Shown: positions 6,549 through 59,065 of the stretch, one piece after another
How positions within the stretch are numbered: position 1 is the first letter of the stretch
How the letters are laid out: every line of letters starts with the position of its first letter
NCBI GenBank assembly: GCA_036971615.1
Contig: JAYKKR010000002.1
Location: 2,356,001-2,420,000 of the forward strand
Direction: 5' to 3'
Origin: Amyloporia xantha
Lineage: Eukaryota; Basidiomycota; Agaricomycetes; Polyporales; Adustoporiaceae
DNA length: 64,000 nucleotides
Notes under the pieces: model-generated
The model's database searches: none
What the model was told of the DNA's origin: nothing
Seen by the model: the letters and a program-made list of their open reading frames with translations, nothing else
Position numbers and translations under genes: made by a program

Positions 6549-6578
6549 AAGAAGCGAGAAGTCAAAAGCGTCGAGGAA

Positions 6579-8480
6579 ATGGTGCCAGAAAAGTTTCACG
6601 AGTTCTTGAAGGTCTTCTCCAAAGAAGCCTCGGAACGACTTCCGGAGCATAAACCTTATGATCATGCCATAGAACTGATTCCTGACGCAAAAACGTTCCA
6701 TTCAAGGGTATACCCACTGTCGCACAACGAACAAGGCGAGTTAGACAAGTTCCTCAGGGAGCAGTTAGCCAAAGGTTATATACGGGAATCGAAGTCGCCC
6801 ATATCCTCTCCCTTCTTCTTCATCAAAAAGAAGGATGGATCACTTCGACCCGTACAGGACTACCGACGGCTTAACGAGATCACGATCAAAAATCGCTACC
6901 CGCTGCCATTGATCTCCGAACTTGTCGACAAACTCAAAGGCGCCTCGATCTTTACAAAGTTCGATATCCGATGGGGGTATAATAACGTACGGATCAAACT
7001 CGGAGACGAATGGAAGGCTGCGTTTGTAACTAATCGAGGGTTGTACGAACCATCGGTTATGTTCTTCGGTCTCACCAATTCTCCGGCGACCTTCCAAGCG
7101 ATGATGAATGACATCTTTGGAGATCTCATCGCAGAAGGAAAGCTCACGGTCTACCTCGACGACATTCTCATCTTCTCTACGGATAAACTGGAGCATGAGA
7201 AAGTCACCCGTGAAGTATTACGTCGCCTTCAGAAAAACGATCTCTTTCTGAAACCGGAGAAGTGCGAGTGGGACGTTCCTAAAACAGACTATTTAGGTAT
7301 GATCGTAGGGAATGGTGAAGTGGCGATGGATCCTGCAAAGATCCGCGGAGTCATGGAATGGCCTACCCCTCGGAATGTTAAGGACATCCAAAAGTTCCGA
7401 GGGTTTGCCAACTTCTATCGTCGCTTCATCAAGGATTTTGCAAAAATCACGCAACCCCTTGATCGTCTAACTGGGAACGTACCCTGGCAGTGGGGTGAGG
7501 AAGAGCAGTCTGCATTCGAGGAGCTGAAACGCTGCTTTAGCACCACACCTGTCTTAGCACTGTATGACCCAGACCGGGAAACGCGGCTAGAGGTGGATGC
7601 CTCTGGGTACGCAACCGGTGGCGTACTTTCGCAAAAGCAGGAGGATGGCAAGTGGCATCCGGTGGCTTACCGATCTCGGGGTATGGATTCTGCCCAGCGT
7701 AATTACGAGATCTATGACAAGGAGATGTTAGCGATAATCGAAGCATTGGAGGACTGGCATCACTACCTCGAGGGTTGTCCTAACACGTTCGAGATCCTTT
7801 CGGATCATAAAAACCTCGAGTATTGGCGCACAGCTCAGCATCTCACGCGACGACAAGCGAGATGGGCTCTATATCTGTCCCGCTTCAATTTCACTATCAC
7901 TCACAAGTCGGGCAAGTCAAATGGAAAGGCTGACGCCTTGTCTCGTCGCTCAGACCTACAGGTTGGAGACGACGATGACAACGTGGATCAGATTGTCCTG
8001 AAACCGGAACAGTTCCGCATTTCCTCCACGCAGCGTGGGCATGCAGCTGTTGTGGCAGATCGATCGCTGCTGAAGCGAATTCGAGAATGTTCGGACAAGG
8101 ATCGGGAGGTGGCGGACGCCCTAGAAAAGATTCAGAATCTAGGCCCGCCCCGGCTACAGCGCGACTTCACCGAGTGGAATGCCGAGCAAGGGCTTCTGCT
8201 GTTTCGAGGGTGCGTTTACGTCCCAAAGAATGCAGAGCTTCGGCGGGATATTGTCAAAATCCACCACGACGCACCTGCAGCCGGTCACCCTGGGCGAGCC
8301 AAGACCCTCGAGTTGGTATCACGAAACTATTGGTGGCCGGGAATGTCCAAGTTTGTCAATGAGTACGTAAGCACCTGCGACACGTGCAACCGTACCAAGA
8401 CATTCCCGCTAAACCACAAGGACCGCTCAAACCGAATGAAATTCCAGAGCGCCCTTGGCAGGTTATTACCACCGATATGA
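6579..8480 (+). pseudogene. pol: pol segment 2 of gypsy-1: RT, RNase H, integrase N-terminus
   Basis: This segment is in frame with the protease segment; 6579 is simply the first ATG after the nonsense codon. In order: reverse transcriptase with the YLDD active site (about 7154-7165), RNase H (VDAS near 7592, SDHK near 7800) and the HHCC zinc-binding integrase N-terminus (about 8249-8395). The last ~25 codons are out of register: a CCC tract at 8405-8407 corresponds to four bases in gypsy-2 (15748-15751), so true integrase sequence continues in another frame from about 8408. The predicted protein would lack the integrase catalytic core. Confidence 0.92.
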
Positions 8481-17662: not shown

Positions 17663-19668
17663 TATTCCGCCCTATTGTTTCCTTTTCTACGCTTTAATTA
17701 TATGCATTTCAATAAATCTCATGCTGTATGTATAATAATAATAATGCCTCGCCATCCATTAGGCTTTGCAATCTGTCATTCATCACGACGTTTCGTGTGT
17801 GGTCAGGTCAGTGGTGTGACTACAATTCAAAGCGCAAGGACTGATTGGCCATTTCCGACGGCTCCATACACCCCACCCAAGACACGCGCAGAGACAGGGC
17901 CATCTTACATGTGTCCTTCAAAGGATCCAGCTGTGTGGACCCTTTGTGGGACACAGATCCAATGGCCATCTCAAGCGGCAGCATCGCGCTATATTCTACC
18001 GCTATACATATTTCATGTACGCTAAGGTCATTTGAACTGGATCTACCCACCTACCAGCATCTAATACATATTCTCGCCCAACCCAAGACACGCGCAGAGA
18101 CTGGGCCATCTGATATGTGTCCTTCAAAGGATCCAGCTGTCTGGACCCTCTGCGGGACACAGATCCAATGGCCATCTCCAGCGGCAGCATGCGCTATGGA
18201 ATCATGGCGCCACCATGTCCAGACGCGCTATGCAACCATGCGCCACGTACCTTGCCTGCCACATTGTGAGGCGTATGGCACGCAGGTGTTATGATGTGCT
18301 GGCGCTGTTGGACGGGGCCATTTCATCCTTGCTACCCTGGGTCACCCAGAGGAATCGAATCACCGTCCACGTTTTGAGAGTACCCCTGATGCTGATGGAC
18401 AATTCAGCTGCATCCGGAGTACTCATGGCGCGGAGGGCAACTCGATTCCACTGGTGAACGTAGAGAGCAAGGAGTTAATGGCTTTATCCAACAGCGCCTT
18501 GCATGAATCCCGCATCCATGCAGACCATAAATTTGAAACTCACGTTAGAGAGTCAGACTCCAGACAGGAAGACCTGACTTATGTTCCTCCGAGCCGCATA
18601 CCTGTGGCTCAGAAGGACATAAGTCAAATGGGCCTTGTCCGGCGGAAACGGGCGCCATCCGATGGCGAAGTGCATGCGCGCTGATGCTCGCTGTTGGGAG
18701 ATGGAGCTATCGCTCGCCAGACAGGGCGCCTTCCTCTGTGTCACTCGGAGCAGCATACCTGCGGCTCGGAGGGCCACAGATGGAAGTTGCGCTGTCCGGC
18801 AGCGATGAGCGCCATCCGATGGCGCCATGCATGGCGCGCTCATGCTCACCGTGAGATAGCGCTATGGCTCGCCAGACAGGGCGCCTTCATCTATGCTCTT
18901 CAGAGCCGCATACCTGTGGCTCCGAAGGTCATAGACGAAGCCGCCTCGTTAGCGGCTATATGCGCCATCCGATGGCGCCGTGCATGGCGCGCTCATGCTC
19001 ACTGTTGGGAGATGGCGCTATGGCTCGCCAGACAGGGCGCCTTCATCTATGCTCTTCAGAGCCGCATACCTGTGGCTCCGAAGGTCATAGATGAAGCCGC
19101 CTCGTTCAGCGGCAATATGCGCCATCCGATGGCGCCGTGCATGGCGCGCGCAGGCGAGGCACATGGTGCGCAGCCGGCGTGATGTGCTGGCGTTCTCGAC
19201 CTGCATGATTCTTCAATGCTACCCTGGATCAAAGCATCTGAATCGAATCGCCATCCAACCATTGTTGGATGGCCATCCGATTCAGCTGCTTGAATACCAA
19301 GGCCATTGAAGAATTGGCTGGCGCAGAAGGACGTCATGCATTTATGCACTCACCGCGCAGGCAGAGAAACGGATACATACGCCACCTGAAAACACCCACC
19401 TTTGACATGGCGCGATGTCCAAAGAGCATGATTTGCTGGCGTCCTCGAGCTCGGCCATTCGTCAATGCTACCCGAAGTTAAGCGTCTGAATCGCATCGCC
19501 ATCCACATGATTGGATGGTAATGTGATTCAGCCACTTAAATACAAGGTCCATTGAACAAATGGGAGACGCTGGGGACGTCATGCACTCGTGCTCATAAAG
19601 GCAGCGACAAGAAATACATACAGACGACGGCGAGATCCACCTACGACATGGCGCGCAGAGACCCGGTC
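17663..19668. other. KDZ subterminal non-coding region, copy 1
   Basis: No gene is supported. The region is built of repeats: a direct repeat of about 115 bp at 17875-17990 and 18079-18194; three tandem units of about 155 bp (GCCAGACAGGGCGCC at 18716, 18871 and 19027) with ATGGCGCC palindromes; and two diverged blocks (about 19195-19345 and 19440-19590) holding hairpins around CCATCCAA / TTGGATGG. Apparent ORFs on both strands simply cross these repeats. Confidence 0.6.
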
Positions 19669-20423
19669 TCACTCCTCATCTGGCAACAGCACCTCTTTGA
19701 AGGCGTCCAACATCCTTGTGAGGTCGCCGGCATCGCGATGGCGGCTCTCGGCGAAGCGGGTGACCAGGCGTTCGACGTCATCCAATCGATGGCTGACCGC
19801 TCTCATATCGCGGTAGTTGACTTGATAGGTGTCGCCGCGACGCTATGCGGCAATCGATGCAATTTATGTGAATGAATGTGTTGAAAAGGTGGGAGCGGGG
19901 TGGCGACTTACTCTGTCATGCAGTGGATACTTCCACCATGCTGGAAGGTGACTGGGAGGGTCGTCTGGCCAAGTCCACCACGCGGGCTCGGTTTCTGTGC
20001 GCAGCTTCTGTAGCTGCAAGGATGGCGGTGAGGCGAGCGGCGTGAACGGCTGTATCTCGAGGACGTGGATCCGTGGGACGGCCCCAAAGACGGTGGCGTC
20101 GCTGATCTTGCGGACGACGTCGGGGAGCTCGACGTCGGTGACGCCGACGAGGGCGAGGCGGCCAAGGCAGTCACGAAGGGCTTCCTGCTGAGCGTCAGAG
20201 CAGACACGTTGGGGAAGGCGAAGCTTACCATTTCCATGCGGAGGCCAATCTCCCACCGCGCCAAGGTGATGTCGAAGCCAGCCACCTTGTCTCTACCGGC
20301 GGCGACAGACATGATGGTCGCTAGCGCCTGCTCGCAGCGCCAGGCATAGTATGAGATCAGTCGGCGGTTGATAGCGATGAGGCTGGAGAGGGACTGTTCG
20401 CGATTCTTCAAGGCGAGAGCCAT
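19669..20423 (-). CDS. Unknown KDZ-associated gene, copy 1 (three exons)
   Basis: Starts MALALKNREQSL at 20423. Exon 1 ends at ATG followed by GTAAGC, intron 20188-20228 (41 nt), exon 2 begins CAG GAA GCC. A second intron starts at GTAAGT after ...PLHDR (about 19912) and ends at a TAG near 19840. The last exon ends at the stop 19669-19671 after LLPDEE. The predicted protein is about 190 residues, largely helical and charged; I recognise no domain. It is divergent from the transposase gene (about 275 bp apart). The second copy at 25285-26039 reads the same, so the gene is either conserved or very recently duplicated. Confidence 0.6.
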
Positions 20424-23277: not shown

Positions 23278-25284
23278 ATATTCCGCCCTATTGTTTCCTT
23301 TTCTACGCTTTAATTATATGCATTTCAATAAATCTCATGCTGTATGTATAATAATAATAATGCCTCGCCATCCATTAGGCTTTGCAATCTGTCATTCATC
23401 ACGACGTTTCGTGTGTGGTCAGGTCAGTGGTGTGACTACAATTCAAAGCGCAAGGACTGATTGGCCATTTCCGACGGCTCCATACACCCCACCCAAGACA
23501 CGCGCAGAGACAGGGCCATCTTACATGTGTCCTTCAAAGGATCCAGCTGTGTGGACCCTTTGTGGGACACAGATCCAATGGCCATCTCAAGCGGCAGCAT
23601 CGCGCTATATTCTACCGCTATACATATTTCATGTACGCTAAGGTCATTTGAACTGGATCTACCCACCTACCAGCATCTAATACATATTCTCGCCCAACCC
23701 AAGACACGCGCAGAGACTGGGCCATCTGATATGTGTCCTTCAAAGGATCCAGCTGTCTGGACCCTCTGCGGGACACAGATCCAATGGCCATCTCCAGCGG
23801 CAGCATGCGCTATGGAATCATGGCGCCACCATGTCCAGACGCGCTATGCAACCATGCGCCACGTACCTTGCCTGCCACATTGTGAGGCGTATGGCACGCA
23901 GGTGTTATGATGTGCTGGCGCTGTTGGACGGGGCCATTTCATCCTTGCTACCCTGGGTCACCCAGAGGAATCGAATCACCGTCCACGTTTTGAGAGTACC
24001 CCTGATGCTGATGGACAATTCAGCTGCATCCGGAGTACTCATGGCGCGGAGGGCAACTCGATTCCACTGGTGAACGTAGAGAGCAAGGAGTTAATGGCTT
24101 TATCCAACAGCGCCTTGCATGAATCCCGCATCCATGCAGACCATAAATTTGAAACTCACGTTAGAGAGTCAGACTCCAGACAGGAAGACCTGACTTATGT
24201 TCCTCCGAGCCGCATACCTGTGGCTCAGAAGGACATAAGTCAAATGGGCCTTGTCCGGCGGAAACGGGCGCCATCCGATGGCGAAGTGCATGCGCGCTGA
24301 TGCTCGCTGTTGGGAGATGGAGCTATCGCTCGCCAGACAGGGCGCCTTCCTCTGTGTCACTCGGAGCAGCATACCTGCGGCTCGGAGGGCCACAGATGGA
24401 AGTTGCGCTGTCCGGCAGCGATGAGCGCCATCCGATGGCGCCATGCATGGCGCGCTCATGCTCACCGTGAGATAGCGCTATGGCTCGCCAGACAGGGCGC
24501 CTTCATCTATGCTCTTCAGAGCCGCATACCTGTGGCTCCGAAGGTCATAGACGAAGCCGCCTCGTTAAGCGGCTATATGCGCCATCCGATGGCGCCGTGC
24601 ATGGCGCGCTCATGCTCACTGTTGGGAGATGGCGCTATGGCTCGCCAGACAGGGCGCCTTCATCTATGCTCTTCAGAGCCGCATACCTGTGGCTCCGAAG
24701 GTCATAGATGAAGCCGCCTCGTTCAGCGGCAATATGCGCCATCCGATGGCGCCGTGCATGGCGCGCGCAGGCGAGGCACATGGTGCGCAGCCGGCGTGAT
24801 GTGCTGGCGTTCTCGACCTGCATGATTCTTCAATGCTACCCTGGATCAAAGCATCTGAATCGAATCGCCATCCAACCATTGTTGGATGGCCATCCGATTC
24901 AGCTGCTTGAATACCAAGGCCATTGAAGAATTGGCTGGCGCAGAAGGACGTCATGCATTTATGCACTCACCGCGCAGACGAAACGGATACATACGCCACC
25001 TGAAAACACCCACCTTTGACATGGCGCGATGTCCAAAGAGCATGATTTGCTGGCGTCCTCGAGCTCGGCCATTCGTCAATGCTACCCCGAAGTTAAGCTG
25101 TCTGAATCGCATCGCCATCCACATGATTGGATGGTAATGTGATTCAGCCACTTAAATACAAGGTCCATTGAACAAATGGGAGACGCTGGGGACGTCATGC
25201 ACTCGTGCTCATAAAGGCAGCGACAAGAAATACATACAGACGACGGCGAGATCCACCTACGACATGGCGCGCAGAGACCCGGTC
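23278..25284. other. KDZ subterminal non-coding region, copy 2
   Basis: Repeats 17663-19668 almost base for base; differences include a 3-bp deletion near 24975 and single-base changes near 24566 and 25087-25100. No gene is supported. Confidence 0.6.
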
Positions 25285-26039
25285 TCACTCCTCATCTGGC
25301 AACAGCACCTCTTTGAAGGCGTCCAACATCCTTGTGAGGTCGCCGGCATCGCGATGGCGGCTCTCGGCGAAGCGGGTGACCAGGCGTTCGACGTCATCCA
25401 ATCGATGGCTGACCGCTCTCATATCGCGGTAGTTGACTTGATAGGTGTCGCCGCGACGCTATGCGGCAATCGATGCAATTTATGTGAATGAATGTGTTGA
25501 AAAGGTGGGAGCGGGGTGGCGACTTACTCTGTCATGCAGTGGATACTTCCACCATGCTGGAAGGTGACTGGGAGGGTCGTCTGGCCAAGTCCACCACGCG
25601 GGCTCGGTTTCTGTGCGCAGCTTCTGTAGCTGCAAGGATGGCGGTGAGGCGAGCGGCGTGAACGGCTGTATCTCGAGGACGTGGATCCGTGGGACGGCCC
25701 CAAAGACGGTGGCGTCGCTGATCTTGCGGACGACGTCGGGGAGCTCGACGTCGGTGACGCCGACGAGGGCGAGGCGGCCAAGGCAGTCACGAAGGGCTTC
25801 CTGCTGAGCGTCAGAGCAGACACGTTGGGGAAGGCGAAGCTTACCATTTCCATGCGGAGGCCAATCTCCCACCGCGCCAAGGTGATGTCGAAGCCAGCCA
25901 CCTTGTCTCTACCGGCGGCGACAGACATGATGGTCGCTAGCGCCTGCTCGCAGCGCCAGGCATAGTATGAGATCAGTCGGCGGTTGATAGCGATGAGGCT
26001 GGAGAGGGACTGTTCGCGATTCTTCAAGGCGAGAGCCAT
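25285..26039 (-). CDS. Unknown KDZ-associated gene, copy 2 (three exons)
   Basis: Same exon structure and predicted protein as 19669-20423 (start MALALKNREQSL, stop after LLPDEE). I see no difference between the copies in coding sequence. Function unknown; linked only by position to the divergent transposase. Confidence 0.6.
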
Positions 26040-49235: not shown

Positions 49236-49902
49236 TCCCTCCCTTCCGATTACGATAACGGGGAATATCCTGATCGTGGACAAATGCATGGAAGTGAGAC
49301 CCATCGATGGCTGCCCGTACATGATTGAAGAATGGATAGAGTTTGGGATTGTTTTTGATTTCAGCGGGAGTGGAGTTTTTAGGAAGTTGCACGTATGTCG
49401 TATAAAATGATTGAGACACAAGCAAATTGAGAATACAGTGTATGGCCCTAGTAAAATCTGTCAGGTCAATACCAGTAGTACCGACAGTACACACTCACTT
49501 GGAGATGGTGTCAGGGCTGTGTTGAAAACGCTCCTGTAGATCTTCATTGCTACATCCTCTCCGAGCGAAGTAGAGAAATATGCCAAGTTTCTCATCTGCG
49601 TTAATGTACCTGCTGTCACAAAGACCGCATCGGGTTTGCAAATCACGTAGCAAGTGTTGAAAGGTACCCTTGGACATCCCAAATTGACGCCAGAAGCGTT
49701 TCGGATGTCCGCGCCAGAGCTCGTCCATCCATTTGCGGCCTGTCTGCTCAGAATCGTGCATCGGAATTGGCTCTGCCCTCTCCATAAGGAGGTTCATGGC
49801 TACCACTGCTCCAGATACAGCTGCCAAGACAGCGAGCGCACTTCTGCGCTTTTGAGCCGCGGCTCGTAACACTTTGTTCTTGGCCGATTTCGTCGCAACC
49901 AT
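49236..49902 (-). pseudogene. PIF/Harbinger-like transposase, truncated by copia-2
   Basis: Begins MVATKSAKNKVL at 49902. The first part (to 49495) ends ERFQHSPDTISK; the second resumes near 49480 and reads ...AAIDGSHFHAFV...RYRNRKGG, which contains the first catalytic Asp of the DDE_4 (Harbinger) fold. It stops at the copia-2 LTR, so the remaining catalytic residues are lost. An intron is expected near 49455-49495, but the only GTGAGT donor leaves the second exon out of frame, suggesting decay at the donor. Confidence 0.75.
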
Positions 49903-50109
49903 TGGGGCTGAAATGTGCCGTCTCGCACTGCAGTGAGGGACTCAAAGGGCGCGCGGCGGCATGTGACTACATGTGACTACGTGTGACTAATGGGTGACCA
50001 CGCTCTCATGTTCGGCCTTGGCCTTGCTTTGTTTGGAAGGCAAGGCCAAGGCCAAGGCCAGGCGCCGTTGCCGAAGAGGCCCTTATCCACAGAGGGAGTT
50101 ACATCCCAG
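49903..50109. other. Upstream of the Harbinger gene: short repeats and a 14-bp hairpin
   Basis: Three copies of a CATGTGACTA-like decamer lie at 49960-49989. A perfect 14-bp inverted repeat (GGCCTTGGCCTTGC, 50014-50027 with 50040-50053) may belong to a Harbinger end or to gypsy-3. Confidence 0.5.
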
Positions 50110-50149
50110 GTAACGTCCACGATGAGACGTGGACCCACCGCTCAGGTCA

Positions 50150-50574
50150 ATGAGTAATACTTAGGCGTGCGACCAGCGCTGCCCGCGGCGGTGTGAAGGG
50201 ATGTCGGAGACCGGCCCCCTGGGGTCAGTTCTCGTCCATCCGTTCAACCGGACCCGCTTCAGTGGGATCTCCCTGAAGTGGGTTTTGTGGGCCCAGAGGG
50301 GTTACCTCTGGAGCCCCGACGGCGTTGCCACCATCGACGACCTGGGGGGTGTCGCGCGAATAGAGGAAACACAGACGCAAAGGGGTACTCAGAGAGCAGA
50401 TATACTCCTAGGAACTCAGGAGGGAGAGTAGGCGCCAAAACAGCTAACCCGACACATACACCGACACCTAAACCGAAGGCTACTCATAGCACGGATTAAG
50501 GATAGATACAGGCAGAGACCACAGCTATGTACGACGTATGGGCGCCTAAATCACGTGATCTGTGCGTCCGAGCA
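50150..50574 (-). repeat. Candidate 3' LTR of gypsy-3
   Basis: On the minus strand the extra ORF stop is followed by a purine run (AGAGGGAG) and TGCTCGG, a plausible polypurine tract and LTR start at about 50574. The end is not defined and no second copy is present, so this is tentative. Confidence 0.3.
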
Positions 50575-50580
50575 CTCCCT

Positions 50581-52704
50581 CTAACAGGGGGGCGCAGGTG
50601 GCGCGTTTCCGGGCAGCCCGCCCAGGAGCTGCCCCAGTGGGGTGACCGTAGCGGTCGATTCGCTCTCCAGCGAACTGGGAGCCAAAGGAAACAGAGATTC
50701 ATCCTCCGCCTCGCGACCTTCGAGGAGGTTGCGAGAACGGCGGAAGAAGTTCTCGAGATACCTGACCCGCGACGGGTGGATACCTCGATCTGCGTACCAA
50801 TACGCAACGTCCGAGAGCATTGCGTTGGCACCGCTGGTCGGTACGGGGCGGGGCAACTCCGTTGCCCCAACCGGGTACCCACCGACGTGGAGAATGTGCG
50901 CGTACAGTCCTCTTATCGAGAACAGTCGCTCAGTGACGGAGACCCAATGTCCCCGCCCTGCACCCGTCGGTGCTAGCTGACGAGCTAGCACCCACGCAAG
51001 GACGTCCTCGCGCCTGGGGAGGCCGGAGGGCGTTCTTCGAACGGCTGGTGGGATCCGTTCCCGGTTCTGCATGTACCAGGCGAACCAGTCGTCAACCGAC
51101 GAGTCGCGCCTTGGTTGTGTCAGGCGAGGAGTGGCCTTCGGCTTCTTCAAGGGCCCCTGCGTTGTCTGCGAATGAGTCGACCCCTCAACGGAGTCGGCCT
51201 TTTGTTTCGACCGTCCAACCTCAGTCGACCCTTGCGGGTTGGCTGGGGTGGGAGAGGCCGGTCCCGCAACCGGTGGAGGGTTGCGAGTCGGGTCACGCCA
51301 TCCGGTGAGGAGGGCGTGCATCTCTTCAACTGCGCCAAGGCAGGGATCCTCGTTCATTTGCAGAATGAGGTCCCGAATCCTGGCGCGCGCTCCGCCATTC
51401 ATGACGGATGCTTCCCTCATCAGGTGTGACGCGTCCTGGCGAGAACGCGGCACAAATCCTGACCAGGGCCCCACTAGGAACGGATTTGTGTTCCTAGGGA
51501 GCGGGAACCCCGCCGGCCACCCTGTGGGCGCCGGGGACTCCCCGTGCATCGTGTCGGATGCTCGCGGCATGCGACGAGCACCCGACGCTGCCGACGTCCC
51601 CGCTTGGGAGGCGTTGGGCAGCCCACGGGTCGAGACACGGTGCCGCGCTCTGTCGAGGCGGCGGCGTTCCTCGCCGTGGTTCACCTTGGACTCCTCCTCC
51701 TCCCAGTCGTCAAGGTCGTCCTCATCGTAGATGTCGGTCGGCCGACTTTGCGTCGAACGACCTGCCTGAGCTGCCCCATGCGCGAGCAGCTCAGTGTTCT
51801 GAGGTTGGGGCTGCGTCCTGGACGCAGCCTTCGCCTTACCGGCGGGTCGCGCTCCCGTTGGGGGCGGCGATCCTCTCGGTACTTCAGGAGCAACCTCGGC
51901 GACTGCTGTCGCCGCATTGCGTTGCTCCTGGGTCAAGCGGTCCAACTGCTCGCGAGCTTCCTCTCGCTCGCGGCGGTACCGCTTGGCGAGAGCCTCGGAG
52001 GCCTTCAGCTCGCTCTCCATTCGCAAGCCGAAGTCCCGAGCGTCGTCTCGCTCCTCTAGGATGCGCTCTCGCTGATGGCGCAACGCGTTTGCATCGTTAA
52101 ATGCATCACGCTGTTGGTCCGACAGCGATTGCACCTGCAGCCTCAGGTCCGCTACGACCTGGGCCAGGTCCCCACCCCCTCCTGCATTTGGCAGGCCCAG
52201 GTGCGCTCGGAGTAGGCTGCACAAGCCCTCCAAGGTCGCACCATGGGTGTGCGCAAATAGCGGCTCCTGGGCGCGTCCCTGCTCATAATGGGCGAGGAAG
52301 TGCGCGCAGATGTCGCAACCGTGGTTGTGGACGAGCAAAAGCCTGTCCACACCGGGGAGATCCACTGCTGGGAAGGCAGTGAGAATAAACCCAGGCCAGT
52401 TAATGAGGTTAACTGGGCCGGGCGGACAGTGCGTGAGAGGCACTGTCCATGTTGGACGGCGACGCGTTGTCCACACCCTGAAGGCGTGTGGACAGCGCGT
52501 TGCGCCCGTAAGTCTTCTTCGGTGAGCTGCGTCGAGGACGCGCTTACCTGGGCGGTCGGTGGCGGGGCGGAATATGGCGGCGGCGGTGGCAGCGTTGGAT
52601 GCGGCGACGGAGGCGGGGATCCAGCCAGTGAGGGTGGGTCCTCGGCCATCCTTTCTTGCGGCATGGTGTAGTGAGAGAGGCGGTAGCAGGTACCGACAGC
52701 TCAT
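50581..52704 (-). CDS. Extra ORF downstream of gypsy-3 pol (coiled-coil protein)
   Basis: 707 codons on the same strand as gag-pol, starting MSCRYLLPPL about 240 bp after the pol stop. The N-terminal half has HNHGCDICAHFLAH (about residue 149, a Cys/His-rich patch) and a coiled coil (about 195-275: LRLQVQSLSDQQ..., RKR/E-rich). The middle is Arg/Pro-rich and disordered. The C-terminal 150 residues look globular (DDWFAWYM, AYWYADRGI, RYLENFFRRSRN). I recognise no known domain. It has no transmembrane segment, so an envelope-like role is unlikely. It carries the same hairpin density as the pol genes. Confidence 0.7.
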   Translation of the reverse strand: MSCRYLLPPLSLHHAARKDGRGPTLTGWIPASVAASNAATAAAIFRPATDRPGKRVLDAAHRRRLTGATRCPHAFRVWTTRRRPTWTVPLTHCPPGPVNLINWPGFILTAFPAVDLPGVDRLLLVHNHGCDICAHFLAHYEQGRAQEPLFAHTHGATLEGLCSLLRAHLGLPNAGGGGDLAQVVADLRLQVQSLSDQQRDAFNDANALRHQRERILEERDDARDFGLRMESELKASEALAKRYRREREEAREQLDRLTQEQRNAATAVAEVAPEVPRGSPPPTGARPAGKAKAASRTQPQPQNTELLAHGAAQAGRSTQSRPTDIYDEDDLDDWEEEESKVNHGEERRRLDRARHRVSTRGLPNASQAGTSAASGARRMPRASDTMHGESPAPTGWPAGFPLPRNTNPFLVGPWSGFVPRSRQDASHLMREASVMNGGARARIRDLILQMNEDPCLGAVEEMHALLTGWRDPTRNPPPVAGPASPTPANPQGSTEVGRSKQKADSVEGSTHSQTTQGPLKKPKATPRLTQPRRDSSVDDWFAWYMQNRERIPPAVRRTPSGLPRREDVLAWVLARQLAPTGAGRGHWVSVTERLFSIRGLYAHILHVGGYPVGATELPRPVPTSGANAMLSDVAYWYADRGIHPSRVRYLENFFRRSRNLLEGREAEDESLFPLAPSSLESESTATVTPLGQLLGGLPGNAPPAPPC

Positions 52705-52941
52705 TACAAGTGTTTCAATCGCCGCTTCGGAATCCGCCGGCGTCGATCCGCGCGCGCGGGATCTACCAGTTATGGTGATCCAGCGCTTGCGTCTTCAGGT
52801 ATTTCGACCAAGTCGAAATACCTGCTCCCAAGTACTGTCCGTCGCTCGGCGGCGGGCAGTACTTATTTCGTCTGTGTCCTTACACAGGCAAAATATCCCA
52901 TTACCCTACGTCAACTTAATTGTTGGCGTAGGTATTCATAG

Positions 52942-54747
52942 TTACTTTCCTTTCGCATTCTTGCGGGAAAGTGACTTCCAGTGCTTTACTCCATGCAGGG
53001 TAAAGTACTCATCGAGCGCTGCCAACTCCTTGCAGTTGGCATACGGCTCCCAAGTGTGGTCACCGAGCGTCCACCGGACGTGGAACTCGATGCGGTTCCC
53101 GTCCCAACGGTGGCCTACGATCTCGTCGATGAGCCATTCTTGGTTCTCGTCGGCGCCGAAATCGTAGAACGATTGCGCCTCCCGGTTAGGGAAGACGACA
53201 TCGTCGTTCGGTTCATGGCGGCGGAGTAATGAGACATGGAACGTTGGATGGATCCTTCGTTCCTTGAGCTCAGTTGGGAGCTCTAACGTATAGTTAGAGC
53301 TCTCAGGATGACTCGCCGTCACTTTGTACGGTCCTATGAACTTCGGCATCAGCTTCCTGGCTCGTCCCTTAGGGAGGGCCAGGTTCTGTGTCGATAAGTA
53401 CACGGACGATCCGACTTGTATGTCTGGATCGTCCTGCCTGTTTCGATTGGCCTGGTACGCTTGAAGTACTCGGCTTTCGATAATGGCATCGTGGGCCATC
53501 TCTAGGTAGCTTCGTGCACGCTGCGCGAACTCCTTGACACCCACGAATGTACTTTCGGTACCTACTCCGCTGATCGTGCGGGGTAGGTATCCGTAGTTCA
53601 GTTCGAACGGAGCGAACCCTGTAGTTCCACTCACGGCCGAGTTCAATGCGAACTCGACCATGGGGATCTTCTCAACCCAGTTGAGTTGATCCGGGTCCAC
53701 CACTGATCGTAGGACCTGGGATACCGAACGTATAGTACGTTCGGACAGCCCATCTGTCTGCGGGTGGAACGCCGTAGACATGAGGAGCTTTGCTCCTAGT
53801 AGTCGATGTAGTTCACGCCAAAATTTTGACGTGAACTTAGTATCGCGATCCGATACTATCGACTCTGGTAGTCTGTGTAGCCGGACTATCTCTCGAAGAT
53901 ACAGCATCGCTAAGTCCGATGCTGTAGTCGTCGTGTTCACTGGTATTAAGTGAACCATTGAAGTCAACCGGCATATGACTACCCATAAGTAGTCATATCC
54001 GCCAGACTGTGGGAATGGTCCTACAAAGTCCATAGCTATCGAATTCCACGGAAACCGTGGGATTGGTAGTGTATGGAGTAGGCCAGTCTTTAGGTGGTTC
54101 CTGGGCTTGGACGTTTGGCAAGTTCCGCAGGTCACGCAGAACTTTTCAATGTCCTTGCCTATCCTCGGCCACCAGAACCAACGTCGAATGTATTCAGACG
54201 TTTTCTGTGGCCCGAAATGCCCTATCGCCGTGTGACAGTGGTCTATTACGACCTCTGTCAACATTCGACGCCGTAGTGGCACTCGAGGTATGCAAAGAAC
54301 TTCCGCTCCTTGGCGGTTCTTTGTATACAGTAACCCGTCCTTCATTGTGTAGACGGGAAACTGTGCCGGCGCACTAAGGATCTTAGTATAGACTAGGTCC
54401 TTAGCATATCCGGACTTCACCGCCTGCATGAAGTCGACCTCTCTTTCGAGATGCTTCATGGCAGGTGGTCCATTCATAAGAGCGTCGCTGATGGTGGGCC
54501 CTTCGCCTCCATCATCGGCCGCTCCTGGTCGAGCTTCAGGTGGCATTGCAGCAGCCATTTCCGCTGCTTCAACGTCTCGAAGTTCTCGCGGTTGATCAAG
54601 CGGTCGAGTACTGTTTAGTACTCGGCCGGCCTTCAACTCCAATACCCGGTTCGTTGGTAGATCATCGAACTCGGGGTCAAGACGTACGTCTGCCGAGGCG
54701 TAGTCTTGTATTGGCGTGAAGTCGTCTGCGTTGTCGTTCTCGTAATA
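52942..54747 (-). pseudogene. pol: gypsy-3 integrase with chromodomain-like C-terminus
   Basis: In frame with the RNase H segment upstream but separated by TGA at 54748-54750 (context DCLS-stop-YYEND; the expected codon is CGA). It contains the HHCC domain (HCHTAIGHFG, CVTCGTCQTSK), the catalytic core (MDFVG, SDRDTKF, DGLSERTIR) and a C-terminal chromodomain-like module (EFHVRWTLGDHTWEP). The protein ends SLSRKNAKGK at 52942. Confidence 0.88.
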
Positions 54748-55415
54748 TCAAGAAAGGCAATCCGCGACCTTGTTCGACGTTCCTTCCACGTACGTTATTT
54801 CGTACTGGAATCGGGACATGTACTCAAACCACCGAATCTGTCGATTCGATGGGTTGGCAATGCCCTCGAAGAACGTGAGGGCTTTATGATCCGTAATAAT
54901 ATGGATCTTTCGCCCTAGAAGCTTGTCTTCCCATTTGAGGAGAGCTTCTAAGATCCCCAGTGCCTCGTGCTCATAGGTCATATAAGCACGCTGCGAGCTG
55001 GAGAACTTCTTGGAGAGGAACCCAGCAGGACGGCAATTCTGCCACTGCGGTCCTTGTCCATATACTGCGCCCACGCCGTATATCGACGTGTCACTGATAA
55101 CCCAGATTGGATCTGGATTATTAGGATCGATCGGTTTAAGGATCGGTGCCTTACATGCCAGTGCCTTGATCGACTCAAAGCACTTGGTATGCAATGGCCG
55201 CCATATGAATGGTCGGTCATTGTGCACCATGTCCGATAACGGTGTGGTGTAGGCGGTGACGTCTGGCATGAAATGTGCCAGATAGTTCACTAGCCCGAGG
55301 AAGCGTTGTACCTCCTTATATGACCTTGGGATCCGCCATTCGCGGATCCGGGCCATTTTGTCTGAATCCGCATGGAGTCCCTGGTCATCTATAAGATGGC
55401 CTAGGCAGTCCATTC
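54748..55415 (-). pseudogene. pol: gypsy-3 RNase H segment
   Basis: RT connection and RNase H (VISDTSIYGVGAVYGQ, TYEHEALGILEAL, ITDHKALTFFEG). It follows the RT segment after a one-base insertion near 55416 (CC on the plus strand) and ends at the TGA nonsense codon. Confidence 0.88.
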
Positions 55416-55843
55416 GCCGAGTACAAGTCACACTTGGTCTGACTCAGATAAAGCTTCGCTTCGCGGAGCTTTCTGAATACAGTCTTCAAGTGCTGTTCGT
55501 GTTCTTCAACCGAGTTGGAGAACACGAAGATGTCGTCCAAGTAAACGTGGACGAATCTTCCTATACAATCGCGAAAGATTGTAGTCATCAGACTCTGGAA
55601 TGTAGCAGGCGCGTTGCAATCGCCCTGCTGCATTACATGACTGACGAAAGTACCATACGGCGTTGAGAACGCCGTCTTCCAGATGTCCTCCGTAGCAATT
55701 CGTATTTGCTCGTAGGCATCGGAAAGGTCTATCTTCGACCGGTACTTGGCTCGGGCGACGTCCATCCGGATCTGGTCTTGATCCGGAAAGGGCGTAACGT
55801 CCTTTACCGTATTGTCGTTGCGCTGGCATGCGTCAACGACAGT
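55416..55843 (-). pseudogene. pol: gypsy-3 reverse transcriptase core
   Basis: RT fingers and palm with KIDLSDAYEQIR and the YLDD active site (HVYLDDIFVFS, about 55555-55530). It is bounded on both sides by single-base frameshifts (about 55843 and 55416). A 7-bp perfect hairpin (55533-55539/55548-55554) has one arm in the YLDD codons. Confidence 0.88.
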
Positions 55844-56487
55844 CTGAGCTTGCCCGACTTCTTTACTATGCAAAGAAGTGGTGCAGCTTGTGGTGCAGCT
55901 CGCTGTTCCCACCATCCCGCCGCCGTATACCGCTCGATCTTCTCGAGCAGTTGCGGCTTCATCGCGTCCGGGCACCTTGGAAGGTGATACCGGTACACTT
56001 TATCGTTGTCGATAAGTGGTATGCGATGGTTCAGCTCCCGTACTGGAGGCAGAACTAGCGGTGGCGGGCACATGATGTCCGCACACTCGATCAACCACTT
56101 CTCTCGTAGTTGATCGACGTCGGGTTCAAGTGTCTGGCGGATCTCCTCTTCGATGAGTTGATCCGCTAGTGCTTTCTCGACGGCCTCATTCATTCCGAAT
56201 GGGTCTAGTCGTCCATGCAAATCTCTACGTGGTAATGTAGAGGAGTGCAATGTCGGTATCACTCGTTCAGTGATATTCGGCATTGTATTGCTTTTCGTGC
56301 GGGGTCGCGTTCGCGGCCTCGTACTTTGGTGCCGATCTACTCGTTGTGGTGGATCTGGTACATTTTCCACTGTCGAAACGATCCGCGTTTTGCGCCGATC
56401 GTTCCCCTCCCCTCCTAGAACCGTAGTACCCTCTTTCGCAAAGCGAGACAGGGGAGGCTCCGCAGCTGTGGATCTCGCTGCGGGGCC
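55844..56487 (-). pseudogene. pol: gypsy-3 linker and RT N-terminus
   Basis: In frame with the gag-protease ORF but after the TAG at 56488-56490. It contains a hydrophilic linker and the RT N-terminal region (YRYHLPRCPDAMKPQLLEKI, APLLCIVKKSGKLR), then loses frame near 55843 by one base. Confidence 0.8.
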
Positions 56488-58581
56488 CTACTGTCGTCTA
56501 GTGGAGGTAACCGCGGCGGCACCAATGTGCGTCGTGATTCTATGGTGTCGAGTGTCCCGGCGTGACGCCAAGACCTCGGCCTCTTCCTCAGGCTTATACG
56601 CCGGGACCAACACACCACCGATTGAGATGGTGTGTCGGGCGAAGTCGAGTACAACACCATAGGTGTTGCAAAATACGGTACCCAAGATCGCATCATAGCG
56701 ATCTATATCAACAACGTCCATATAATGGATGTTGTTGACGGGACCAATTTGTATCTTGGGGCGCGCACCGTAGTTGATACGGGTGCGACTACCCTTGGTA
56801 CCTAGTTGCAGGCCGATCTGTTCCTGCAGATCGACTCTGTCGGCCATACTCAGATATGCCATTTCAGGCGATATTGAGTCGGTCGTACACCCTGTGTCAA
56901 ACAAGGTGTACGCTCGAATGTCGTTGATCATTACTTCCGCGCATAACGTGCGTTGAGATCGGGGCGACCGTTTAGGTTGCCCCGATGGCTCCGTTACTCG
57001 TCGTACGCGAGGATCGTATAACCATGCCGCCTTCATTGCTCGTGATGGCGGTATGGCGTCCATTGCATGGCAGTGGACGATTTCCTCTACCGCATCATCA
57101 TATGATTGCTGCGGCAGAGGGTCTGGCTGCTCATGTGGCGTGCGTTCTACTGTACGCATCGCCCCAAATCGCATATATCCCATGTGCACTCCGTCGTCAC
57201 TTTCCTCGTGATCGGCGGGCGCGAATGAGACATGAGCGTCAGCTTCTTCCCCGGAGTCGTATTGAGACCCCTCAAATCCGTAATTGGATTGGGGGTACTC
57301 CAACACTTCGCCCCCGCCACCGTCTTCCGGTGACGGGTCGTCGGCAGCCTGGTCATCATTGCCAGGTTGCTCAGTCGGCGATACTTCATTATCCGAGGTA
57401 TCGTCAATTATCCGCTGTGCGAACATACGCGGAGTGCTCTTTCCCTTGTTTTGGGGGCATTCCGCGTCATTCGCATAGTGAGGTCCTCCACATCGGAAGC
57501 AAGAGATTGTTCCTCGCTTCTGATTGGATCCTCCTTTGTGGGCTACTCCTTGATTAGGAGTAGTCGACGATTGTCCTGGAGGCTTCGTCGAATGTTGTTG
57601 ATTCGACGAACGTCCCGTGGACGGACGCTTCTGCGGCCTATCTCGAAACGTAGTAGTTCGAGGTTGGCTCGGGCGGGGAGTTGACAACTTAGCGTTGTCG
57701 GCCTTCGCCACTGAGCTGGGGTAGGTTCTGGATTCGTGATTACGGATCCATTCCTGTCCAGTCTCATATGCAATGGCTGCCGCTTCGAGTTCCTCGAGTG
57801 AGGAGGTCTCGGGCGTCAGCCGATGCTGCATGGTCAGGCTTTCGACCATACTCTTGGGCAAAGCCTCCATGAACCTTGTTCGCAGATGGTACGCCGTAGG
57901 CTCCTCAGCCATACGCTTGCCATACTGCAACAAGCGTGTAGTTACGTCTGCCGCACCTCCAGTGGACAGATCGTACTTCACACTGTTGAACTTCCGAGCA
58001 GCGAGCTGCTCGGGATTCTTCAGTAGGAATCGTCGATGCATCTGCACGACGATGTCCTCGAACGTCCAGTCCCTCACCGTTCGAGATGGGGACTGCACGG
58101 TTGTGTAAAACCACTGCGAGGCACTATCTTTGAGTGTCTCGCCGAGGATACGGACTCGATCTTCATCAAGATCGGGTCCTGTGATCCGGAGGATGTGGAA
58201 GTAGTCGAGTATCTTCTGCAACCACACCTCAAAGACATCGACGTCGTCCTCCCCACTATATGCTGGTGGGAAGCGCGGCTTCGCAATCTTCAAATATGCT
58301 GGGGCTTCGCTCCTAGGGGGCGAGCCCACTCTCGCTCGAATCATTTCCCTGATTCGAGTGAAGGTGGCCACCCGATCCCGCAGTGTCTGCAGTAGCAGCA
58401 CTGTGTGATTCGGATGGCGTGTGTGTACCTCGACGAGTGTACACCGCTTGTGGCACCGCTCCATAGTGGCGACCATAATTGGTCGCCCCCATGTATGATG
58501 CCGTCGGCCCAGGTCCTTGTCCAGTGTGACGGATACTGCGCAGGATATCCAAAGGATATATGCGATGGTATTCCGCTCCAC
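56488..58581 (-). CDS. gag: gypsy-3 Gag and protease
   Basis: 697 codons. The N-terminal ~50 residues are weakly supported; the capsid-like region spans about 90-290 (LKIAKPRFPPAYSGEDDVDVFEVW onwards), with a zinc knuckle CFRCGGPHYANDAEC at about 365. The aspartic protease is in the last 150 residues (LFDTGCTTDSIS, then YDAILGTVFCN). It ends at an in-frame TAG that separates it from RT, so it is either a point nonsense or a natural gag-protease stop. Gag and protease in one frame differ from gypsy-1. Confidence 0.82.
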   Translation of the reverse strand: MERNTIAYILWISCAVSVTLDKDLGRRHHTWGRPIMVATMERCHKRCTLVEVHTRHPNHTVLLLQTLRDRVATFTRIREMIRARVGSPPRSEAPAYLKIAKPRFPPAYSGEDDVDVFEVWLQKILDYFHILRITGPDLDEDRVRILGETLKDSASQWFYTTVQSPSRTVRDWTFEDIVVQMHRRFLLKNPEQLAARKFNSVKYDLSTGGAADVTTRLLQYGKRMAEEPTAYHLRTRFMEALPKSMVESLTMQHRLTPETSSLEELEAAAIAYETGQEWIRNHESRTYPSSVAKADNAKLSTPRPSQPRTTTFRDRPQKRPSTGRSSNQQHSTKPPGQSSTTPNQGVAHKGGSNQKRGTISCFRCGGPHYANDAECPQNKGKSTPRMFAQRIIDDTSDNEVSPTEQPGNDDQAADDPSPEDGGGGEVLEYPQSNYGFEGSQYDSGEEADAHVSFAPADHEESDDGVHMGYMRFGAMRTVERTPHEQPDPLPQQSYDDAVEEIVHCHAMDAIPPSRAMKAAWLYDPRVRRVTEPSGQPKRSPRSQRTLCAEVMINDIRAYTLFDTGCTTDSISPEMAYLSMADRVDLQEQIGLQLGTKGSRTRINYGARPKIQIGPVNNIHYMDVVDIDRYDAILGTVFCNTYGVVLDFARHTISIGGVLVPAYKPEEEAEVLASRRDTRHHRITTHIGAAAVTSTRRQ

Positions 58582-58600
58582 TTTCGGGAAGCGAGAGCCT

Positions 58601-59065
58601 ACTCTATTCTCACCCCGTAGTCTTTTTCCGTCTTCATAGGTAGTCTAATGATCTTTCCGTACGCACGTGACCGTTTGTATTACTCTACGCGCCTATCTCG
58701 AATAGGAATAACTTCTTCTACTCGCTCTTACTCCTTGTGCTCGCTCACAGCCTACGGGTCGGAGATCGGGCGATCCCTGCGCTCTCAGCAGGATTCGACC
58801 ATCGTCGCCGGACTCTCGCGCGCTCAACGACGCGCTCGACGTCCGAAACTCCACGGCCGCGCTACGTGGCACTCTGACGATAGCCGTCTAGTGTCCCCGC
58901 AGCAATCGAGGACTCACAGAGAGTCCACCAAGTCTCGAACTCTACGATAGGGAATACTGTCCCCTGACACCGGAGACCTCCAATCGACGAGCTCTCACAT
59001 TGGTGGACGTTCAGGGGAGATAGTCCACCCCTACACGTAGTACGTTCGATTGCTCAACCTCTACC
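58601..59065 (+). other. Upstream region and possible 5' LTR end of gypsy-4
   Basis: Lies between the divergent gag genes of gypsy-3 and gypsy-4. Near 59000 the sequence CTCTCACA TTGGTGGACG could be an LTR end followed by a primer-binding site. No second LTR copy is available to test this. A 7-bp hairpin (GGTGGAC/GTCCACC) spans 59003-59030. Confidence 0.35.

What the first reader, a model, noticed from the sequence alone, without database searches (positions are those of the whole stretch)
50115..58487. A retrotransposon whose coding sequence is packed with perfect short hairpins
Reading gypsy-3, I repeatedly find inverted repeats with 7-14 bp arms and 3-15 nt loops. Further examples beyond the feature entry: 50115/50128, 50293/50305, 50850/50861, 51474/51490, 51897/51908, 51951/51966, 52396/52409, 52424/52441, 53021/53034, 53404/53426, 53559/53578, 53638/53650, 53838/53851, 53935/53949, 53973/53990, 54288/54316, 54605/54618, 55262/55276, 55533/55548, 55564/55577, 55765/55780, 55813/55834, 55858/55872, 56257/56269, 56814/56827, 56884/56905, 56958/56975, 57022/57047, 57543/57556, 58157/58168. 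For random sequence with even base use I estimate roughly seven such perfect pairs (arms at least 7, loops 3-15) in 8.5 kb; I count about fifty without a systematic scan. gypsy-1 read the same way shows only occasional ones (for example 7229/7246). They occur in gag, protease, RT, integrase, the extra ORF and a spacer. Possible explanations: genome-wide ordered RNA structure as in some RNA viruses, protection from RNA-based silencing, packaging or cDNA constraints, or a mutational process that copies short inverted segments.
Basis: partly seen in the sequence, partly recalled or inferred. Interest (0 to 1): 0.88.

Follow-up and report, generated by a model that had tools for sequence, protein, structure and literature searches.

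The report
Retrotransposon built of short hairpins
A jumping gene in a mushroom-type fungus carries about ten times more short self-pairing hairpins than expected, in its protein-coding parts as well as elsewhere, and its relatives kept the overall folding while their sequences drifted apart, partly by matched changes, so the folding itself appears to be under selection.

Summary
Window 50587-58522 has 60 perfect hairpins (arms >=7, loops 3-15) against 5.4 in dinucleotide shuffles. Shuffles keeping protein and codons remove the excess; gypsy-1 and copia lack it. The element is a decayed, truncated copy of a 10.1-kb Ty3/Gypsy-type LTR retrotransposon. Three sister families at about 70% nucleotide identity are hairpin-rich too. 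Folding-energy difference is 31-33% for family A and 19-23% for B-D; other retroelements in the window give 1-8%.
Structure is maintained: the same substitutions placed at random would cut 50 hairpins to about 15, whereas the real relative has 36. Same-place hairpins, some with compensatory changes, survive above simulation.
Unlike RNA phage controls, G-U pairs add no stability on the coding strand and, summed, are not better tolerated than A-C or transversion mismatches. So Watson-Crick self-pairing of both strands, or of DNA, seems to be kept rather than folding of the sense RNA alone. Multi-base arm copying was not evident among recent copies, though three compensated hairpins were (0.5 expected). 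Function is inferred.

The parts
50083..58522 (-). Truncated copy of a Ty3/Gypsy-type LTR retrotransposon (family A) packed with hairpins; both LTRs missing
   Evidence: collinear with full-length copy on C34 (LTR 232 bp, 99.6% identical)
50350..50586 (.). 237-bp repeat inserted in this copy (absent from the other family A copies seen there); not part of the element
56488..58522 (-). gag region (open frame runs on to 58644 into other sequence)
   Evidence: ORF, no Pfam match; on C34 copy: weak Ty3_capsid match, E 0.015, below cut-off
54748..56490 (-). reverse transcriptase / RNase H region, frame broken in this copy
   Evidence: RT_RNaseH 7.8e-23, read with X at stops; RVT_1 1.3e-28 in C34 copy
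52942..54747 (-). integrase (H2C2, rve, SH3_Tf2-1; chromodomain match below cut-off)
52795..52941 (-). non-coding spacer with a perfect hairpin of 13-bp arms and further imperfect stems seen by eye
50581..52794 (-). third ORF, 737 aa, no relative found in the search made
52796..52824 (.). hairpin, 13-bp arms, 3-nt loop, in spacer
53278..53302 (.). hairpin, 10-bp arms, 5-nt loop
53638..53656 (.). hairpin kept in families B and C with compensatory changes (1 pair in B, 2 in C)
53900..53926 (.). hairpin, 10-bp arms, kept at the same centre in B and C with a compensatory pair
53810..53837 (.). hairpin, 8-bp arms; both arms identical in the window copy, B and C
55329..55349 (.). hairpin kept in family C with a compensatory pair
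55564..55583 (.). hairpin kept in family C with a compensatory pair
55857..55879 (.). hairpin identical in the window copy, B, C and D (one change in the A copy on C40)

Best explanation
Shown: this is one lineage of Ty3/Gypsy-type LTR retrotransposons of a mushroom-forming fungus whose whole length (LTRs, gag, pol, spacer, third ORF) has been shaped at the nucleotide level to form short local hairpins, and the total is maintained over time, with some compensatory changes. The extra stability comes almost wholly from Watson-Crick pairs, so sense and antisense strands fold about equally well. Inferred: selection acts on a form in which both polarities, or DNA, matter. I think most likely that strong self-folding of sense and antisense transcripts keeps them from annealing to each other or to small RNAs and so protects the element from RNA silencing; perfect arms stay short (at most 13 bp in this copy), well under the size usually needed for Dicer (recalled). 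The confidence given is for this whole statement; the shown part alone I put near 0.9.
For: Excess over codon-preserving shuffles, energy z about -20 to -27 in family A gag and pol. Shared by families A-D and by the more distant L061; not seen at this level in gypsy-1, gypsy-2, copia and 8 foreign Gypsy fragments. Random placement of the same substitutions would destroy it. Same-centre hairpins kept 18 of 51 (simulated 7.5) C to D, 19 of 46 (2.6) B to C, 7 of 29 (0.6) A to C, 6 of 29 (0.8) A to B; kept with covariation 5, 8, 4, 1 (simulated 1.0, 0.7, 0.4, 0.3). Sense G-U gives no extra stability (A -5.6 vs shuffle -5.8; MS2 -9.7 vs -7.7, Q-beta -10.4 vs -8.5). One-sided changes in stems (arms >=6), observed/simulated: G-U 0.58, A-C 0.72, transversion 0.64; RNA phages 0.73, 0.49, 0.51. 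The LTRs are the most structured part of the C34 copy, 64-69%.
Against: No expression, small-RNA or RNAi data were seen, so the silencing part is inference. Individual hairpins turn over quickly, raw substitution rates in stems are only a little lower than outside (0.143 vs 0.155 C-D, 0.213 vs 0.243 B-C, 0.248 vs 0.292 A-C) and among recent copies sometimes higher (0.021 vs 0.010, window vs C60). The covariation excess (double Watson-Crick changes 1.39x simulated for arms >=6, 1.12x for arms >=5) is far weaker than in RNA phages (4.62x, 3.34x). Stems may partly sit in slower-evolving sites, which would inflate retention; the simulation keeps base, a step of three and a 90-nt neighbourhood, not the conservation of each residue. 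A-C exceeds G-U in stems (120:59 over four families, about 57% expected from composition), a tilt to the antisense strand that a both-strands model does not predict; the A family also gains a little G-U energy on the antisense strand (-10.1 vs -9.4). The tilt is not uniform: in the 9-pair counts family B shows the reverse. Of the nearest outside relatives, L062 shows the trait only weakly.
Confidence: 0.45

Rival explanations
1. Minus-strand cDNA folding: the selected molecule is the antisense single-stranded DNA made during reverse transcription, whose hairpins compact or protect it or help strand transfer.
For: In counts of stems with one mismatch (at least 7 Watson-Crick pairs), A-C on the sense strand (G-T on the antisense strand) exceeds G-U in all four families, 55:22, 27:17, 22:10, 16:10; one-sided A-C changes less depleted than G-U, 0.72 vs 0.58. 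Hairpins also in LTRs and spacer.
Against: The tilt is weak, the families are not independent, the 9-pair counts show family B with the reverse tilt, and energy differences of sense and antisense are close (A 33.2 vs 32.8%, B 18.7 vs 17.5, C 22.8 vs 23.0, D 19.3 vs 17.7).
Confidence: 0.2
2. Mutational origin: reverse transcriptase or DNA polymerase switches template within near-palindromes and perfects them, without selection.
For: Watson-Crick-only signature; no wobble preference; the process is known in principle (PMC8794818, abstract and start of introduction seen). In four recent copy comparisons 3 hairpins are kept with a compensatory pair against 0.5 simulated (2 in C34-C40, 1 in the two D copies). 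On this recheck I raised this rival from 0.15 to 0.2 for that reason.
Against: No multi-base reverse-complement arm conversion was evident in the difference clusters of 5 copy pairs 1-4% apart (judged by eye). Covarying pairs are single in 17 of 19 rows, in the other two the pairs are 3 bases apart as expected of synonymous sites (some hairpins appear in more than one comparison). Recent copies: lost 31 (random 47.5), gained 13 (random 9.0); the mutation model at balance needs gains about equal to losses. Caveat: most recent differences may be post-insertion host mutations, not reverse-transcription errors.
Confidence: 0.2
3. Ordinary genome-scale ordered structure of the sense genomic RNA (packaging, stability, translation pacing), as in RNA viruses.
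For: Size and spread of the energy difference and loose positional conservation resemble what PMC7642675 reports for coronaviruses (passages seen).
Against: No sense G-U gain and, summed, no G-U tolerance, both seen in MS2 and Q-beta groups under the same tests. Single comparisons vary: C to A-family has G-U 0.65 vs A-C 0.44.
Confidence: 0.15
4. Chance, codon bias or base composition.
For: None of weight.
Against: excess falls off with loop length, which composition cannot cause.
Confidence: 0.01

Closest known systems
Genome-scale ordered RNA structure (GORS) of RNA viruses
   Same: Pervasive short stem-loops through coding sequence, high folding-energy difference, poor conservation of individual pairings, maintained despite divergence (PMC7642675 passages; PMC3950689 passages)
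   Different: Found in an LTR retrotransposon; A at 31.4% in 350-nt windows is above the 23.4% that a passage of PMC7642675 calls highest recorded (shuffling and folding details differ); stability from Watson-Crick pairs, nearly strand-symmetric
Structured single-stranded RNA phage genomes (MS2, Q-beta)
   Same: Comparable energy difference by the same calculation (25.8-30.5%)
   Different: Phages gain G-U stability on the sense strand, tolerate G-U changes and covary strongly; their excess of perfect arms >=7 is smaller, 3.3x and 5.5x against 6.1-10.6x in A-D
Ty3/Gypsy LTR retrotransposons with mapped RNA (yeast Ty3)
   Same: Element type: LTRs, reverse transcriptase, RNase H, integrase
   Different: Ty1 and Ty3 RNA are described as mosaics with up to 30% stably structured regions (PMC11381356, abstract and one section seen); here 94 of 100 windows of family A fold below all 5 shuffles
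Template-switch-made RNA hairpins (PMC8794818, abstract and start of introduction seen)
   Same: Perfect short stems, compensatory changes
   Different: No multi-base arm conversion evident here

Membership tests
Ty3/Gypsy LTR retrotransposon | Two near-identical LTRs with target-site duplication | tested here: met
   C34 copy: 232 bp, 99.6%, ATCCT on both sides; C45 copy: 269 bp, 99.3%, TGGGT on both sides when the end is taken at TGTAAGG; C23 copy: 285 bp, 98.9%, ends not resolved. Window copy itself lacks both LTRs
Ty3/Gypsy LTR retrotransposon | Reverse transcriptase, RNase H, integrase in this order | tested here: met
Ty3/Gypsy LTR retrotransposon | Capsid/gag domain | tested here: inconclusive
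   Ty3_capsid E 0.015, below cut-off
Genome-scale ordered RNA structure | Folding energy above dinucleotide- and codon-preserving controls along the whole sequence | tested here: met
Genome-scale ordered RNA structure | Structure of the sense RNA as the selected form (G-U pairs count) | tested here: not met
Genome-scale ordered RNA structure | Structure formed in cells | not testable with these tools
   needs probing
Template-switch hairpins | Multi-base reverse-complement conversions in one step | tested here: inconclusive
   none evident in recent copies (by eye); covariation single-pair in 17 of 19 rows; but 3 compensated hairpins among recent copies vs 0.5 simulated
Known structured RNA family | Match to a curated RNA model | tested here: not met
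   no Rfam match at gathering score in 49900-58700

The most novel reading that the evidence does not exclude
A retrotransposon lineage that has rewritten nearly every stretch of its sequence so that both of its strands fold on themselves, a whole-genome shield against base-pairing attack (sense-antisense duplexes, small RNAs), recognisable by a Watson-Crick-only, strand-symmetric signature not seen in the RNA phage genomes tested here.
Probability: 0.3. Interest if true: 0.9.

Novelty: new variant of a known kind. Interest (0 to 1): 0.74.

Why it matters
Pervasive structure has been described mainly for RNA viruses, and its purpose there is unsettled. Here it occurs at a comparable or higher level in a DNA-resident element that can be compared copy by copy in one genome, beside other Gypsy elements that lack it. 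That makes the silencing-evasion idea directly testable in fungi, and the Watson-Crick-only signature suggests a way to tell from sequence whether one strand or both are under selection. In eight literature searches (search listings of open-licence papers) I saw no report of such an element.

Tried and rejected
Loop composition as a guide to the acting strand: sense loops A- and T-rich, as in phages; not decisive. Relatives in other species as DNA: viral contigs gave none; genome contigs gave 8 distant Gypsy fragments in bacterial bins, used as controls. Proteins of relatives in Grifola, Sparassis, Mycena and other Agaricomycetes were found but their DNA was not fetched. Third ORF: no homologue among the 7993 candidates scored. 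Codon register of the pairs: even over the three registers in A, B and C. Difference clusters among close copies: read for templated inversions; a few clusters do lengthen a stem in one copy (for example a 4-base difference at about 52832 that completes an 8-bp arm in the window and C60 copies but not in C34, and a G-C to A-T swap between the two D copies), none shows a copied arm. A first reading that G-T mismatches on the + strand point firmly to the antisense strand was weakened when family B and L019 gave mixed or opposite ratios. The folding figure of 44% that labels 'spacer' covers mostly the frame-broken end of integrase in the C34 copy, so it is not used for the spacer.
Full report
What was checked. 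A full scan counts 3 to 11 per kb through 50-58 kb (63 in 50000-58650) and 0 to 5 per kb elsewhere, save 7 at 24 kb. The clusters at 18-20 and 24-25 kb come largely from a repeated motif. In the part shared with other copies (50587-58522) there are 60 against 5.4 by shuffle.

It is not chance. Dinucleotide shuffles of 52942-58522 give 3.7 against 45 observed, and 0.8 against 27 for arms >=8. Shuffles that keep protein, codon use and boundary dinucleotides (24 each) give 3.1 against 23 in gag, 3.0 against 22 in pol, 3.5 against 17 in the third ORF; folding energy lies 11-27 standard deviations below these shuffles on either strand (C34 copy). In B and C coding regions the energy z-values run from -5.5 to -14.2, and hairpins exceed the shuffle maximum in three of the four regions tested clearly and in the fourth, B's third ORF, only just (8, mean 3.9, maximum 7). 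gypsy-1 (6549-8480) and copia show no hairpin excess (2 vs 2.5; 5 vs 3.5); gypsy-1 has a mild energy excess (z -3.8 and -2.3). Excess depends on loop length: 60, 48 and 59 repeats for loops 3-12 in A, B, C, and roughly 7 per ten loop sizes beyond about 30.

What the element is. The genome is held (46.8 Mb, 60 contigs). Besides the window copy, family A copies lie on C34, C60 and C40, 96-99% identical over the integrase query. Families B, C, D are at 69-70% to the window copy, 79-80% B to C/D and 87% C to D over the pol alignment (L019, a partly matching copy, aligned poorly there, and L020/L021, an interrupted copy, were left out). Full-length copies of A, B and C are 10,072, 10,189 and 10,169 bp with LTRs of 232, 285 and 269 bp, 98.9-99.6% identical. 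The A copy is flanked by a 5-bp duplication and has a G-rich tract before the 3' LTR. Its pol carries reverse transcriptase, RNase H and integrase. The window copy is cut at 58522 and about 50083, lacks LTRs, and carries a 237-bp repeat at 50350-50586. Both the window and C34 copies carry frame breaks. Protein relatives occur in Grifola frondosa, Sparassis crispa, Mycena venus, Phanerochaete sordida and others, so the host is an Agaricomycete by inference.

How strong and how wide. The energy difference from dinucleotide shuffles in 150-nt windows is 33.2% (A), 18.7% (B), 22.8% (C) and 19.3% (D, whole locus with flanks); 94 of 100 A windows lie below all 5 shuffles, 78 of 101 for B, 83 of 101 for C, 65 of 98 for D. 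In 350-nt windows it is 31.4, 19.3, 21.6 and 20.4%, against 27.8% for MS2, 30.4% for Q-beta, 8.0% for gypsy-1 and 1.0% for copia. By region in the C34 copy the LTRs are highest (64-69%), pol 44%, gag 31%, third ORF 24%. Passages of PMC7642675 give 15% for SARS-CoV-2 and 23.4% as highest recorded; methods differ somewhat. The nearest outside relatives differ: L061 19.3% and 10 repeats vs 1.6, L062 7.2% and 4 vs 0.7. Eight distant Gypsy fragments range from -2.3 to 7.3%, with repeat counts 0.2 to 2.3 times their shuffles; two of them exceed shuffles at arms >=8 (L069 5 vs 1.0, L073 3 vs 0.2) without an energy excess. On an integrase tree of 16 rows (gypsy-2 left out, too short) A, B, C, D group together and L061 and L062 are their sister pair.

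Is it maintained. When the substitutions between two families are re-placed at random (same base, same step of three, within 90 nt), hairpins fall from 50 to 14.8 and energy from -57.0 to -48.3 for C to D at 15.7% divergence, while real D has 36 and -55.2. For B and C (23.9%) the simulations give about 9, the real sequences 39 and 52. Same-centre hairpins kept: C to D 18 of 51 (simulated 7.5), B to C 19 of 46 (2.6), A to C 7 of 29 (0.6), A to B 6 of 29 (0.8). Kept with a compensatory pair: 5, 8, 4 and 1 (1.0, 0.7, 0.4, 0.3). Examples are 53638-53656 and 53900-53926. But most individual hairpins are not perfect at the same place in another family: of 21 arms >=8 in A, 2, 4 and 1 in B, C and D, and raw substitution rates in stems are only slightly below those outside. 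So places are loosely kept and the total is kept.

Which strand. If the sense RNA were the selected form, G-U pairs should help. In MS2 and Q-beta they do: -9.7 vs -7.7 and -10.4 vs -8.5 kcal per 150 nt, observed vs shuffle, sense strand; on the antisense strand -6.9 vs -7.0 and -7.4 vs -6.4. In A it is -5.6 vs -5.8, in B -5.3 vs -5.9, in C -4.5 vs -5.4, in D -5.4 vs -5.7 on the sense strand, and -10.1 vs -9.4, -9.2 vs -9.6, -9.5 vs -9.4, -9.3 vs -9.3 on the antisense. One-sided changes in stems (arms >=6), summed over six comparisons, are 0.58 of simulated for G-U, 0.72 for A-C, 0.64 for transversions; in phages (eight comparisons) 0.73, 0.49, 0.51. With arms >=5 the figures are 0.69, 0.78, 0.73 and 0.81, 0.65, 0.63. 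These sums count both directions of the same pairs. Counts of single mismatches in near-perfect stems give A-C over G-U in all four families, 120:59, about 57% expected from composition (base frequencies), a weak tilt to the antisense strand that other counts do not bear out for family B. The plain reading is Watson-Crick-only and nearly strand-symmetric.

Selection or mutation. Template switching can perfect stems (PMC8794818, abstract and start of introduction). Against it as the main cause: no copied arm evident in the difference clusters of five close copy pairs; covarying pairs single in 17 of 19 rows and three apart in the other two; in four recent comparisons hairpins lost 31 (random 47.5) and gained 13 (random 9.0), while between families gains were 20 vs 7.7 (C to D), 42 vs 8.7 (B to C) and 17 vs 2.3 (A to C). 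For it: in the same four recent comparisons 3 hairpins are kept with a compensatory pair against 0.5 simulated. Recent differences may be largely post-insertion, so neither side is decisive. On rechecking I raised this rival from 0.15 to 0.2.

Mechanism. Shown: pervasive, lineage-specific, maintained self-pairing. Inferred: its use. Self-shielding of both transcripts from silencing is my first choice; cDNA folding second. Neither was tested.

Noticed in passing
window 18809-20289 and 24425-25905: A duplicated stretch about 5.6 kb apart with a repeated GCGCCAT..ATGGCGC motif; folding energy also well below expectation for its composition.
   Followed up: partly
window 58525-58900: Sequence next to the element (376 bp, up to the limit of the query) that is 98-100% identical at three other places; the gag open frame runs into it to 58644, so the window copy looks chimeric here.
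   Followed up: partly
window 50350-50586: 237-bp repeat with some 25 or more full-length or nearly full-length matches elsewhere in the genome, inserted in this copy only among the family A copies seen there.
   Followed up: no
window 58437-58522: This 85-86 nt piece occurs alone at four other places at 98-99% identity.
   Followed up: no
window 50581-52794: 737-aa third ORF after integrase without Pfam match or protein relative in the searches made; the C34 copy has a 775-aa frame there.
   Followed up: partly
L019 upstream part: Hairpin-rich sequence beyond the part that matches the element, with the opposite G-U/A-C ratio, perhaps another such element in the other direction.
   Followed up: no
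A copy on C34, LTR: The 5' LTR begins with a hairpin (TGTAACGG..CCGTTACA) and folds 69% more stably than its shuffles.
   Followed up: no
D copies on C34 and C12: Two copies only 1.9% apart differ by a compensated base-pair swap in one stem, which either fast selection or a concerted mutation could explain.
   Followed up: no
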